Assembly: GCA_007692495.1 (NCBI GenBank)
Contig: REBZ01000125.1
Location: 1 to 64,000 of the forward strand
DNA length: 64,000 bases
Reading direction: 5' to 3'
Source: Alkalicoccus sp.
Lineage (GTDB): Bacteria; Bacillota; Bacilli; Bacillales; Salisediminibacteriaceae
Shown piece after piece: positions 349 through 46,505 of this stretch; the stretch's first letter is position 1, and each line of letters opens with the position of its first letter. The position numbers were made by a program, and so were the translations under genes. Below the pieces are notes generated by a model, which had not been told where the DNA came from, searched no databases, and saw only the letters and a program-made list of their open reading frames with translations.

Positions 349-724
349 GGCTCTGTTAAAGCTCCGTGTTGTTTTTGAAAGTCACCTGCGGCTCTTTTTT
401 CTTCTCTTACCGGCGGAAGCCTGCCGTGGGGCTGATCTTCAGCTGTTTGGCCTGCGCTTCATCCCACCGGCGTCTCCGCCGTTACGGAGGGAAAGCCAAC
501 TCGTTATCAAAGCAAACGGTTTAAATAAGAAGATTTACTATGTAGAAAACTTCTTCCTATTACCCTGTTGCAGCCACAGGGAGGACTCCGAGGCGATCAA
601 AAACGAGGCGAAGATCCATTTAGGAAGAAATCAGCTGAGCCCGGCCCGCCCGGAAAGCGTTCCGGAAGGCGGAAGCAGGAAACCGTCTATCTATACATGA
701 AAAACACTTTATCAACAGCCTGGA
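349..724 (+). repeat. Intergenic repeat, mosaic copy 1 (family 2 fragment plus family 1 core and right end)
   Basis: GGCTCTGTTAAAGCTCC..., GGGGCTGATCTTCAGCTGTTTGGCCTGCG, AGCTGAGCCCGGCCCGCCCGGAAAGCG, ATCTATACATGAAAAACACTTTATCAACAGCCTGG. Confidence 0.85.
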
Positions 725-754
725 AAACAAGCCGCCGTCAAGGCGGCTTTGTTT
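725..754 (+). terminator. Hairpin AACAAGCCGCC/GGCGGCTTTGTT abutting right end of repeat copy
   Basis: Inverted repeat GCCGCC-gtcaa-GGCGGC followed by T-rich tract. Confidence 0.6.
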
Positions 755-1108
755 TGTGCTTGCTGATTGAGTGTTTCTGAGAGCTTCACATGTCTTTTGC
801 TTCCCGAAAGGGCTGCCGTTATTCATCATTTCAAGCCGAATATTAAACCGATTATAGAGAAACGATAACAGTTTACCTATGAATTTATAAATTTGCCCCT
901 GAAAATCAGGAATAAAAGGTGTTAACTCATAAAAAAAGGGTACACCCATAGTGACAGGGAAACGTTCCGTGCTGTTCCTTGGATGAAGGAATACATAAGA
1001 AAGGGTATATCACTATAGAGGATAGGCCATGAGGTGTAACTGGAACATTTCCCTTATAAACAAGGCTTCAAGTCTTGGGAACGAACCAATTTTTAGGGGG
1101 AATTATGA

Positions 1109-2951: not shown

Positions 2952-2990
2952 AAAAAACGGCCCCGGACATTATAGCCGGGGCCGTTTTTT
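2952..2990 (+). terminator. Rho-independent terminator
   Basis: AAAAAACGGCCCCGG ... CCGGGGCCGTTTTTT. Confidence 0.85.
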
Positions 2991-2992
2991 CA

Positions 2993-3427
2993 GCTTGTAG
3001 ATTAAGTTATCTCTCCAGAATAGTTATCCCAGTCATTGGATAAGCCCCTCCTTCTGGCGGAAGCTTACCGCAGGGGCTGGTCTTCAGCTGTTTGGCCTGC
3101 GCCGTGGGCTGAATGTGCTGATCCCCCCGGCCTCTCCATCAGACGTTACGGAGGAAAGTCATCTCTTTATCGAAGAAAACTTCGCTCCAATCCGGCAGGT
3201 GCAGAGCCGCAGGCCCCTTTTATCAACGTGGAGCTTTAACAGAGACACTCATTCAAAATAGCTGCACCATGGTGTGGGAAAACGACCTTCTATATCGTTG
3301 GTTTTTACATACCCTGCTTCTTCCTTCAAAGGACGCAGTCTTTTTACCGAAAGCTGCAGAAGACAGTGAGGGACTCCGGCCCGCCCGGAAGGCGGAAGCA
3401 GGGAACCGGATATCTATACATAAAAAA
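2993..3427 (+). repeat. Intergenic repeat, mosaic copy 2
   Basis: Left arm TGTAGATTAAGTTATCTCTCCAGAATAGTTATCCCAGTCATTGGATAAG, GGGGCTGGTCTTCAGCTGTTTGGCCTGCGCCGT, GAGCCGCAGG..GGAGCTTTAACAGAGAC, right end ATCTATACATAAAAAA. Confidence 0.85.
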
Positions 3428-3458
3428 GCACTGGACAGAATAAGTTCTGTCCAGTGCT
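3427..3458 (-). terminator. Rho-independent terminator of rpsD
   Basis: AGCACTGGACAGAA-taag-TTCTGTCCAGTGCT followed by T-run on the minus strand. Confidence 0.85.
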
Positions 3459-5854: not shown

Positions 5855-6250
5855 GGGTGAAAGCTTGGTGTGGGCCAGAGGGAACTTCGCTCCAGTCCTG
5901 ACGTTCCGGACAGCCGAAAGCTTTCTCCGCGTCAGGTAGAAAGAGCTGCAGGCGCTCTCATATCAGCACAGAGCTACAACAGAGACGCTCATGCAAAATA
6001 ATTATCCTGTGGTGATTGAAAACAGCTTTCTATATCGGTGGATTTTAAACGACCTGCTTTTTCATACGAAGGAGGAAATGACTTCGTAATTTACCGGAGT
6101 ACAGGAGACATGGTGGACTCCGGAGCGAGCCAGGACGAGCTGATTCCATCCTACGGGAGGATGGAATCAGCTGAGGCCGGCCCGCCTGGAAAGCCTCCCC
6201 GTGGAGGACGTTCCTCTTATCTAAGTTTTATTTTCAAGGCAGCTGTGGTA
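5855..6250 (+). repeat. Intergenic repeat, family 2 type copy
   Basis: GAGCTACAACAGAGACGCTCATGCAAAATA..., GACTCCGGAGCGAGCCAGGACGAG, AGCTGAGGCCGGCCCGCCTGGAAAGCC, TTTTATTTTCAAGGCAGC. Confidence 0.85.
6138..6172. repeat. 15-bp perfect hairpin inside repeat copy
   Basis: AGCTGATTCCATCCT-acggg-AGGATGGAATCAGCT. Confidence 0.85.
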
Positions 6251-10634: not shown

Positions 10635-10651
10635 CTTACCGATCTGTATTC

Positions 10652-10680
10652 AAAAGCTGCCCTCGAGGAGGACAGCTTTT
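10652..10680 (+). terminator. Rho-independent terminator after thiI
   Basis: AAAAGCTGcCCTCGAGGaggACAGCTTTT. Confidence 0.7.
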
Positions 10681-10752
10681 GTCAGGCTGTTTATAAAGTA
10701 TTTTTTATACATGCGTATACATTTCCCTGCTTTCGCCTCCGCAGGACGCTTT
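10681..10752 (-). repeat. Family 1 right-end remnant abutting thiI terminator
   Basis: AGGCTGTTTATAAAGTATTTTTTATACATGCGTATACATTTCCCTGCTTTCGCCT. Confidence 0.75.
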
Positions 10753-10895
10753 CTTACCCGTAGTCAATACTTTTGGTGGTTCTTTTTGAAGAAATAAGCA
10801 GAGGAGGCGGATCGGGGCGTGCTTCTCCTCCTTTTACTTGCGTCCGCTCTTTTCTCCAAGCATAATAAAAACATGGATCGAAAGGAGAGGATGAG

Positions 10896-15554: not shown

Positions 15555-15587
15555 TGGCTGCACTTTAATAATAGAAAAACTTATATA

Positions 15588-15620
15588 AAGAAGCCGGCGG
15601 TTATTACTGCCGGCTTCTTT
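15588..15620 (+). terminator. Rho-independent terminator of tpx
   Basis: AAAGAAGCCGGC-n-GCCGGCTTCTTT. Confidence 0.85.
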
Positions 15621-15755
15621 GAGGCTGTTGATAAAGTATTTTTACGTGTATAGATATACGCGACCCTGCTCACGCCTTGGCCTTTATCGCCCAGGAGCGT
15701 CCCTGCGGGTTCAGCTTATTGTCCAGGTCTGCTGTCATAAAGTATTCCAGCCTTT
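15621..15755 (-). repeat. Family 1 truncated copy abutting tpx terminator
   Basis: AGGCTGTTGATAAAGTATTTTTACGTGTATAGATATACGCGACCCTGCTCACGCCTTGG...GGAGCGTCCCTGCGG. Confidence 0.75.
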
Positions 15756-18199: not shown

Positions 18200-18340
18200 T
18201 TATGAGCTGAAAAAGTATTTTTACGTATATGTACAGTTTGTTATTGATGACTGGAGAGAAACTCGATTCCCGCTGGATAACGAAGCTTATATAACAGCCG
18301 GAATAAATGTTTTGGAACGCTCACTTAATCAGCATCCTGA
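18200..18340 (-). repeat. Family 1 internally deleted copy (left arm and right end)
   Basis: AAAAAGTATTTTTACGTATATG right end and GAAGCTTATATAACAGCCGGAATAAATGTTTTGGAACGCTCACTTAATCAGCA left arm. Confidence 0.7.
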
Positions 18341-18371
18341 AAAAAGGCCTCCTCGAAATGAGGAGGCCTTT
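18341..18371. terminator. Terminator hairpin, copy 1 of a duplicated terminator
   Basis: AAAGGCCTCCTC-gaaat-GAGGAGGCCTTT; same sequence recurs at 18728. Confidence 0.85.
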
Positions 18372-18727
18372 CCAGGCAGTAGATAAAGTGTTTTTTATGT
18401 ATAAATAGACGGTTTTCTGCTTGCGCCTTCCGGGGACGCTTTCCGGGCGGGCCGGCCTCAGCTAATTTCTTCCGCCCGCAGGTTGGAAGAAACGGATCTT
18501 CGCCTCGTCCTTGATCGCCCCGGAGTCGTCCCTGCGGCTGCAGCAGGGAAATAAGAAAAAGTATTTTACCATCCCCCCTTTATTGAAGCCGTTTTCTTCG
18601 ATAAAGAGATAGTTTTCCCTCCGTAACGGCGCAGGCCATACAGCTGAAGATCAGCCCCGCGTAGGGAAGAAGCTTATACACTGACTGGAATAAATATTCT
18701 GGACCGATCATTTAATCAACAAACTGA
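18372..18727 (-). repeat. Family 1 reference full-length copy
   Basis: Reverse strand: TTGTTGATTAAATGATCGG...GGGGCTGATCTTCAGCTGTATGGCCTGCGCCGTTACGGAGGGAAA...CTGCTGCAGCCGCAGGGACGACTCCGGGGCGATCAAGGACGAGGCGAAGATCCG...AGCTGAGGCCGGCCCGCCCGGAAAGCGTCCCCGGAAGGCGCAAGCAG... Confidence 0.9.
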
Positions 18728-18756
18728 AAAGGCCTCCTCGAAATGAGGAGGCCTTT
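18728..18756. terminator. Terminator hairpin, copy 2 of a duplicated terminator
   Basis: AAAGGCCTCCTC-gaaat-GAGGAGGCCTTT, identical to 18343-18371; probably serves usp on the minus strand. Confidence 0.85.
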
Positions 18757-18793
18757 CTGTGATACAAAACGAATTATTTACCCGGTCCTGCTG

Positions 18794-37199: not shown

Positions 37200-37233
37200 A
37201 ACCTGGATTTGGAGAGTATGATCCGGAGCCGGA

Positions 37234-37262
37234 AAGCCTGTCAGATAAACTGGCAGGCTTTT
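37234..37262 (+). terminator. Rho-independent terminator of fxsA
   Basis: AAGCCTGtCAG-ataaa-CTGgCAGGCTTtt; repeat left arm starts immediately after. Confidence 0.75.
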
Positions 37263-37265
37263 CCA

Positions 37266-37727
37266 TCTTGTTGATTGAATGATCGTTTTAGAATATTTAT
37301 TCCAGTCAGTGTATAGACTCCTTCTCTTACCGCGGGGTTGGTCTTCAGCTGTATGGTCTGCGCCGTGCGAGAATCCATTTTGGCGGACTGTTCTTCCGCC
37401 AAAATCAGCCGGGAACAAGCCCTCGGGTAAGCCCCGCCGAGAGTGCAGCAGCGTTATGTCCATCTCATAAATGAGCTATCTTCAAGGCAGCCTCTCGAAA
37501 AAAACGGCTTCAATAAGGAAATTTATCATGGTAAAAAACTTCTTCTATTTCCTTGCTGCAGCCGCAGGGGCGACTCCGGGGCGACCAAGGACGAGACGAA
37601 GATCCAATTCTTCCAACCTGCGGGCGAAAGAAATTAGCTGAGCCCGGCCCGCCCGTAAAGCGTCCCGGAAGGGGGAAGCAGGAAACCGTATATCTATACA
37701 CCAAAAACACTTTATCAACAGCCTGGG
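37266..37727 (+). repeat. Family 1 full-length copy
   Basis: CTTGTTGATTGAATGATCG..GAATATTTATTCCAGTCAGTGTATAGACTCC, GGGGTTGGTCTTCAGCTGTATGGTCTGCGCCGT, CTTGCTGCAGCCGCAGGGGCGACTCCGGGGCGACCAAGGACGAG, ...ACACTTTATCAACAGCCTGG. Confidence 0.9.
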
Positions 37728-37728
37728 G

Positions 37729-37757
37729 AAATCCTGTCAGACAAGATGACAGGATTT
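37729..37757 (+). terminator. Terminator hairpin abutting right end of repeat copy
   Basis: AAATCCTGTCA-gacaaga-TGACAGGATTTT. Confidence 0.75.
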
Positions 37758-37879
37758 TCTATCTTGCTGGCGGTATTCTTGCGCTGGAATATTTTCTTGA
37801 TTGGATACGCCTCTCCAGCTTCCGATGTTTTCAGGGACAACAACTTTTTCAATGGAAAGTAATGAAAGGAATGGGAAAG

Positions 37880-42780: not shown

Positions 42781-43350
42781 CAGTTTGTTGAACATACCTA
42801 TGTTTATTTAAATGCTATGTTAAAGTTCGCTGTTGCCGGAGAAAAACTTCGCTTTCAACCGGCAGGCTGCGCCCTGCGGGATCTTCCAATCTCCTTCCGT
42901 AAAATCAGTGACAAGGTGACTTTTCGAGACGCCTGCGGAAAAAGAAAACGGGAAGATCCTCCCGGACGTCAGGGAAGCCGCGTGCGCGGCAAGCGAAGAA
43001 AAAAGCCGCAGGCACTCCAAAAACAACCCGGAGCTTTAACAGAGACACTTAGGCAGCATCCCTGCACCATGAGGGATGAAAAGGCCCTTTTATCGTCAGG
43101 TAACCCCCTCTGTCTAAACAGGTGGAACGAAACCTTTTTAAACAGGAGATGCTGCCTTGTCTTTTGTACCGTAAGCTGTAGTGGACATGGGCGACTCAGG
43201 AGCGGTTAAGGTCGAGTCGAAGATCCATTCCGACAGACCAAAGGAGGGCGGAATTAGCTGAGGCCGGCCTGCTCGGAAAGCCTCCCCATGGAAACGAAAG
43301 CGGCCGGTTATGACTTATCTGCTTTATTTTCAAGGAAGCCTATTAAAAAG
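42781..43350 (+). repeat. Family 2 long copy
   Basis: CAGTTTGTTGAACATACC..., GCCGCAGGCACTCC..CCGGAGCTTTAACAGAGACAC, GACTCAGGAGCGGTTAAGGTCGAGTCGAAGATCCATTCCGAC..GGCGGAATTAGCTGAGGCCGGCCTGCTCGGAAAGCC, TTTATTTTCAAGGAAGC. Confidence 0.85.
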
Positions 43351-46317: not shown

Positions 46318-46505
46318 ATGCCTTCGTATTTTTACCGGGAGCTGCTGGAGACATGGATGACTACGGAACGATCAAGGCAGAGCCCCACTTTGACCGACAA
46401 AAGAAGGGCAGAATCAGCTGAGACCGGCCCGTCCGGAAAGCTTTTCCATGGAAACGAAGGAGGACGTGACTCTTCTTTACGTTTTATTTTCAAGCCAGAT
46501 AATTT
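46318..46505 (+). repeat. Family 2 right-half copy
   Basis: TTTTTACCGGGAGCTGCTGGAGACATGGATGACTACGGAACGATCAAGGCAGAGCC..AGCTGAGACCGGCCCGTCCGGAAAGC..GTTTTATTTTCAAGCCAG. Confidence 0.8.

What the first reader, a model, noticed from the sequence alone, without database searches (positions are those of the whole stretch)
18372..18727. Dispersed, structured intergenic repeat (family 1), best copies at 18.4 kb and 37.3 kb
The about 350-bp sequence at 18372-18727 (minus orientation) recurs nearly block for block at 37266-37727 (plus), and in part at 400-724, 2993-3427, 10681-10752, 15621-15755 and 18200-18340. Conserved blocks: GGGGCTGATCTTCAGCTGTATGGCCTGCGCCGTTACGGAGGGAAA; CTGCTGCAGCCGCAGGGACGACTCCGGGGCGATCAAGGACGAGGCGAAGATCC; AGCTGAGGCCGGCCCGCCCGGAAAGCGTCCCCGGAAGGCGGAAGCAG; ATCTATACATAAAAAACACTTTATCAACAGCCTGG. 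ORFs in the copies differ from copy to copy, so it does not look protein coding. No transposase is present, so spread would need a trans-acting source. Bacillaceae are known to carry intergenic repeats; I cannot tell whether this family is already catalogued.
Basis: seen in the sequence. Interest (0 to 1): 0.72.

Follow-up and report, generated by a model that had tools for sequence, protein, structure and literature searches.

The report
Mobile repeat that duplicates gene terminators
The repeat is a small non-coding jumping element, present at about 80 places per genome, that inserts exactly at the stop signals of transcription (terminators) and copies the whole signal so that one stands on each side, which probably makes the insertion harmless to the neighbouring gene.

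Summary
The repeat is a MITE-like element, typically 350-460 bp, with imperfect terminal inverted repeats (CAGnnTGTTGATnAAGT). It has about 80 right ends in the window's genome (genus Alkalicoccus) and 83 and 56 in two sister species. Of 41 two-ended copies, 21 have such a direct repeat, against 11 of 1640 mismatched pairs. Sister species carry the same sites empty, with one terminator, so the terminator is the target-site duplication (29-37 bp). The duplication is centred on the terminator's dyad and its length follows the hairpin's. Several orthologous terminators were hit independently in two species, once in demonstrably opposite orientations. A sister species carries a coding element with matching ends and perfect 30- and 33-bp terminator duplications; it is the probable helper, but its interior is unassembled and its transposase family unknown. 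Similar elements occur in Caloramator and Paenibacillus. Closest known: IS1272 (IS1182 family), which targets terminator hairpins but deletes them. Whole stem-loop duplication was proposed on paper; I found no published example, but paper access was limited. New variant of a known kind.

The parts
18373..18726 (-). full element copy (354 bp), left end at 18726, right end at 18373
18342..18372 (.). terminator, one copy of the 31-bp target duplication GAAAGGCCTCCTCATTTCGAGGAGGCCTTTT (31/31 identical)
18727..18757 (.). terminator, second copy of the 31-bp duplication
18206..18341 (-). second, internally deleted element abutting the other side of the 18342-18372 terminator
37264..37725 (+). full element copy (462 bp); site is empty in sister species G001
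37231..37263 (.). terminator, left copy of the duplication (27/33 identical to the right copy)
37727..37759 (.). terminator, right copy, diverged with paired changes that keep the stem
425..722 (+). element with decayed left end; G001 has another subfamily in opposite orientation at the same orthologous terminator
723..755 (.). terminator abutting the right end of the 0.4-kb copy
2952..2990 (.). terminator abutting the left end of the 3-kb copy
2991..3432 (+). element copy, rearranged inside; G001 has a different subfamily left end at the same orthologous terminator
10651..10681 (.). terminator abutting the 10.7-kb remnant (single and without element in G001)
10683..10759 (-). right-end remnant of an element, absent from G001
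15587..15620 (.). terminator abutting the 15.6-kb remnant
15621..15755 (-). right-end remnant of an element

Best explanation
The repeat is a non-autonomous transposable element (MITE) mobilised in trans by an insertion sequence with matching ends. The transposase uses the intrinsic terminator of a gene as its target, most likely as an extruded hairpin or cruciform, because target sequences are unrelated but all are palindromes of terminator type. The two strand-transfer points lie at the two feet of the palindrome, so gap repair copies the entire hairpin with its A- and T-tracts to both sides. The host gene keeps its terminator, and the element ends up between two terminators, transcriptionally insulated. 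Shown: the ends, the duplication, the empty sites, the dyad centring, repeated hits of the same terminator, and a coding element with matching ends and the same target. Inferred: recognition of the hairpin rather than of linear DNA, the strand chemistry, transcriptional insulation, and that the coding element is the helper.
For: Direct repeats of at least 18 nt abut both ends in 21/41 two-ended copies (median 32 nt, 92.7% identical) against 11/1640 mismatched flank pairs; a hairpin with stem of at least 8 abuts at least one end in 38/41, against 78/4000 random positions. Empty orthologous sites have one terminator: window 37 kb in G001; L055 in G007 and G000 (33/34 bp); L016 in G007 and G001 (30 bp); L123 and L120 in G007 (29 and 31 bp). 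The duplication is centred on the dyad (offset 0 in 9 of 10, 1 in the tenth), length 30-37 bp, r=0.91 with hairpin length; shorter terminators in Caloramator and Paenibacillus give shorter duplications of roughly 23-26 bp. Orthologous terminators carry different subfamilies in G000 and G001: opposite orientations at window 0.4 kb, a different left end at 2.9 kb, and a different subfamily at L119/L108a. In G001 four right ends and two left ends of a longer coding element each follow a terminator, and two complete sites have perfect 30- and 33-bp terminator duplications.
Against: The interior of the coding element is not in the held assembly, so its transposase family and catalytic type are unknown and helper activity is inferred from matching ends and shared target. 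About half of the two-ended copies no longer show the duplication; decay is the likely but unproven reason. The length correlation rests on ten cases of similar size, and the dyad length was measured on the same sequence that defines the duplication.
Confidence: 0.85

Rival explanations
1. Fixed-stagger transposition: an ordinary DDE transposase with an unusually long, fixed stagger of about 33 bp that prefers terminators for their A- and T-tracts; the hairpin itself is not measured.
For: Most Alkalicoccus duplications lie within 30-37 bp, and most have A-tract/T-tract borders.
Against: Length follows the hairpin (r=0.91) and falls to roughly 23-26 bp with the shorter terminators of Caloramator and Paenibacillus; centring on the dyad is exact in 9 of 10.
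Confidence: 0.2
2. The element did not duplicate the terminator; it inserted between, or recombined into, pre-existing tandem terminators.
For: Tandem terminators exist in bacteria in general, and two window copies (18.2 and 18.4 kb) share a middle terminator.
Against: Sister species have one terminator at the empty site at five loci; young copies have 100% identical terminators on both sides.
Confidence: 0.03
3. It is an RNA-mobilised element (for example reverse-transcribed, as group IIC introns are mobilised next to terminators) whose transcript is ended by the terminator.
For: Structured conserved cores and terminator-adjacent insertion; some copies are truncated at one end.
Against: Inverted terminal repeats at both ends, truncation on either side, precise two-sided duplication, insertion in both orientations, and a coding element with DNA-transposon architecture and matching ends.
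Confidence: 0.05
4. It is primarily a host regulatory RNA or attenuator conserved for function.
For: Each copy holds two structured cores (GAAGATCC-hairpin-AGCTGA) on opposite strands with paired changes.
Against: Presence/absence between species 91-92% alike, both orientations at one terminator, frequent truncation, and no fixed gene context.
Confidence: 0.04

Closest known systems
IS1272 / TnSha1 (IS1182 family), staphylococci (PMC4923244, PMC5678879)
   Same: Targets terminator and other hairpins of unrelated sequence; hits the same terminator repeatedly and in both orientations; structure-like target.
   Different: IS1272 deletes or replaces the stem-loop and makes no target duplication; here the whole stem-loop is duplicated. 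PMC5678879 draws this outcome only as hypothetical pathway b. Relation of ends and transposase not established.
Bacterial MITEs in general (review PMC10969869), e.g. RUP and BOX of pneumococcus (PMC3049150)
   Same: Small, non-coding, terminal inverted repeats, intergenic, structured, many copies, mobilised in trans.
   Different: None in the papers read is described as duplicating a terminator.
SPRITE of Streptococcus pneumoniae (PMC3049150)
   Same: Dispersed repeat associated with terminator-like hairpins at gene 3' ends.
   Different: There the repeat itself is terminator-like and no empty sites were found; here the terminator is host sequence and differs at every locus.
IS5-family elements with ends CAGGCTGTTGAAAAAGT in Gram-negatives (L186, L167, L209; family named from own reading of the protein)
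   Same: Nearly the same terminal word.
   Different: Their target context is CTAG/TTAG-like, not a terminator.
CRISPR spacer integration by Cas1-Cas2 (own knowledge, analogy only)
   Same: Staggered attack at the two borders of a palindromic unit of about 30 bp duplicates the whole unit.
   Different: No relation in sequence or genes is claimed.

Membership tests
MITE (non-autonomous DNA transposon) | short, no transposase gene | tested here: met
   150-760 bp between ends, mostly 340-460; no conserved ORF
MITE (non-autonomous DNA transposon) | terminal inverted repeats | tested here: met
   imperfect, CAGnnTGTTGATnAAGT at both ends
MITE (non-autonomous DNA transposon) | target-site duplication with empty orthologous sites | tested here: met
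MITE (non-autonomous DNA transposon) | autonomous element with the same ends | tested here: inconclusive
   coding element with matching ends and same target in G001, interior missing
IS1182 family / IS1272-type stem-loop targeting | insertion at hairpins or terminators of unrelated sequence | tested here: met
IS1182 family / IS1272-type stem-loop targeting | stem-loop deleted or replaced, no duplication (IS1272) | tested here: not met
   stem-loop duplicated
IS1182 family / IS1272-type stem-loop targeting | IS1182 transposase (PF13751 and relatives) | tested here: inconclusive
   two assembled PF13751 elements in G001 have other ends (GGGGCTGTC); helper peptides match no family
IS5-family elements with the same terminal word | CTAR-type target | tested here: not met
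   terminator target instead
Rfam-listed RNA family | covariance-model match above gathering score | tested here: not met
Group IIC intron | reverse transcriptase or intron with no target duplication | tested here: not met
   non-coding copies; target duplicated

The most novel reading that the evidence does not exclude
A transposition system whose target is defined by DNA secondary structure: the transposase attacks at the two feet of an extruded terminator hairpin and duplicates the entire hairpin, whatever its sequence or length, making a self-insulating insertion. This would be a natural example of the whole-stem-loop duplication pathway that was only drawn as a possibility for IS1272, used by a class of elements spread over Bacilli and Clostridia.
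Probability: 0.55. Interest if true: 0.82.

Novelty: new variant of a known kind. Interest (0 to 1): 0.73.

Why it matters
Target duplications are normally short and of fixed length; here the duplicated unit is a complete functional signal apparently chosen by shape. It would explain how a repeat can reach about 80 copies in a 2.7-Mb genome with little damage: the gene keeps its terminator and the element is fenced off by a second one. It also offers a test of structure-directed transposition, because the target can be redesigned at will, and a natural clock, since the two terminator copies start identical and diverge with paired changes.

Tried and rejected
PF13751 and PF01609 transposases in the genus as helper: assembled copies have other ends. 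Search for an intact helper by its ends and its end peptides in genus, family, order, plasmids and viral contigs: only the G001 contig ends, and no family match for the 33-residue peptide. The scan of genome contigs with CAGGCTGTTGAAAAAGT hit mostly elements with CTAG-like targets in Gram-negatives; these were set apart. RNA-alone explanation rejected because of empty sites. Pre-existing double terminators rejected for the same reason. Literature searches for terminator duplication by insertion gave no earlier case in the open library; the main IS review was not held, so ISfinder entries with long palindromic duplications, which I recall for the IS1182 family, could not be checked.

Full report
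Observation. In the window's own genome (G000, 2.74 Mb, 220 contigs, 81% complete) the 451-bp query gives 54 matching pieces with only 40 of 192 candidates scored. The 20-nt right end with up to 3 mismatches occurs 80, 83 and 56 times in G000, G001 and G007, against 0, 1 and 0 for the reversed-pattern control. Copies occur in six other members of the genus and hardly elsewhere in the family. The genus is Alkalicoccus: a contig of relative G006 has the same length (180033) as NODE_5 of Alkalicoccus luteus H11, which the scan of named genomes returned.

Anatomy. An alignment of 15 copies gives the left end CAGCTTGTTGATTAAGTTATCG..., the right end ...AAAAACACTTTATCAACAGCCTG (imperfect inverted repeats), and conserved inner blocks. 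The elements hold two structured cores, inverted versions of one motif, GAAGATCC-hairpin-AGCTGA, one near each end. In the right-end core 842 of 870 cells pair, with changes on both sides at several pairs. The copies hold no common reading frame. No Rfam family matches.

The terminator. Outside each end stands an intrinsic terminator, and where both sides are intact it is the same terminator, different at every locus. In G001 a young subfamily of about 412 bp shows perfect cases, such as AAAACAGGTGCGGCTCTCTGCCGCACCTGTTTT on both sides of L119. Among 41 unique two-ended copies, 21 have a direct repeat of at least 18 nt abutting both ends, against 11 of 1640 mismatched pairs. Hairpins abut the left end in 32, the right end in 28 and at least one end in 38 of 41, against 78 of 4000 random positions. 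All family-1 insertion sites in the window abut a terminator. A small sample of flanking genes gives 6 convergent, 5 tandem and 1 divergent, as expected for terminators.

Empty sites. G001 is 91% identical to G000 over 10.9 kb and collinear with the window. At window 37 kb, G001 has one terminator and no element. A search with joined flanks found further empty sites: L055 empty in G007 and G000, L016 empty in G007 and G001, L123 and L120 empty in G007, with 29-34 bp shared between left and right flanks on the empty site. L124 is also unoccupied in G000, but its terminator there differs too much to measure the duplication. The terminator is therefore the target-site duplication.

Geometry. In the ten copies whose duplication could be delimited, it is centred on the terminator's dyad (offset 0 in nine, 1 in one), is 30-37 bp long, and its length follows the hairpin (r=0.91). 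Similar elements in Caloramator proteoclasticus (281-282 bp, two copies) and Paenibacillus plantiphilus (322 bp) have the end CAGGCTGTTGAAAAAGT and duplicate shorter terminators of roughly 23-26 bp. A. luteus elements of 508-718 bp have duplications of 31-37 bp.

Repeated use of the same target. At the orthologous terminator at window 0.4 kb, G000 and G001 carry different subfamilies in opposite orientations; at 2.9 kb they carry different left ends. The G001 site of L119 is, by its flanking sequence, the orthologue of G000 L108a, with another subfamily. This fits a palindromic target.

Helper. Ends of G001 contigs show a longer element: CAGGCTGTTGAAAAAGTCGCC... followed by an open frame starting MMGHWQDRRHVS, and CAGAGTGTTGATTAACTG... 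preceded by a coding end SLSLFGWFKLFRKKPTAFLHKKRTKRRPEPCIW. Four right ends follow four different terminators. The two left ends follow terminators identical to two of these, giving duplications of 30 and 33 bp without mismatch. Its interior is not in the held assembly, and searches for relatives found none, so its family is unknown and helper function is inference. No match to this end was found in G000, a genome only 81% complete.

How it works. Best supported is trans-mobilised DNA transposition in which the two 3' ends of the element join at the two feet of the terminator palindrome and repair duplicates the palindrome. Direct recognition of an extruded hairpin is inferred from unrelated target sequences, exact centring and length following the hairpin. 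A fixed stagger of about 33 bp remains a rival (0.2).

Comparison. IS1272 and TnSha1 (IS1182 family) insert into terminator hairpins, repeatedly and in both orientations, but delete the stem-loop (PMC4923244, PMC5678879). [quoted passage not shown] The present element behaves as that alternative. It is a MITE by all features tested except that the helper is only partly read. It is not filed in IS1182, because the deletion feature of IS1272 is not met and the transposase is unread. From memory, ISfinder lists long direct repeats for some IS1182 members, so parts of this may be known there; I could not check.

Limits. Draft assemblies break at these repeats. The genomes of the survey are unnamed except through matching contigs. 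About half of the two-ended copies show no duplication any more, most with one terminator left.

Noticed in passing
window 6116-6243, 43186-43338, 46358-46500 (and G001 insertions near 24.5 and 26.1 kb): A second repeat family shares the GAAGATCC/AGCTGAGGCC core with family 1 but has other ends (GAGCTTTAACAGAGACACTCAT......TTTTATTTTCAAGGCAG) and no clear terminator duplication; the core seems to be a module used by several elements.
   Followed up: partly
L217 (Bacillus sp. EAC) and L066 (G002): Core-like sequences (CTTTCCG..GGGC..GCCTCAGC / GATCTTC) recur outside Alkalicoccus-type elements; the dispersed GC-rich repeats of other Bacillaceae may be relatives with the same terminator target.
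   Followed up: no
L161-L279 (genome-contig scan): The terminal word CAGGCTGTTGAAAAAGT is shared by IS5-like elements with CTAG/TTAG-like context in Nitrospirae, Planctomycetota and Proteobacteria (TA just before the end in 75 of about 120 hits), a striking sharing of ends between elements with different targets.
   Followed up: partly
window 18206-18757: Two elements share one terminator in tandem (element-terminator-element-terminator); also seen in L103 and L126, so arrays can grow by repeated insertion at the same terminator.
   Followed up: partly
L139 1-130 (G001): The coding element has a terminator-like palindrome (AAAAAGTCGCCCGCGGGCGGCTTTTTT) just inside its end, before its gene, perhaps blocking outside transcription.
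   Followed up: no
L005, L008, window 37231-37263 against 37727-37759: The two terminator copies of older insertions diverge with paired changes that keep both stems, suggesting both stay functional.
   Followed up: partly
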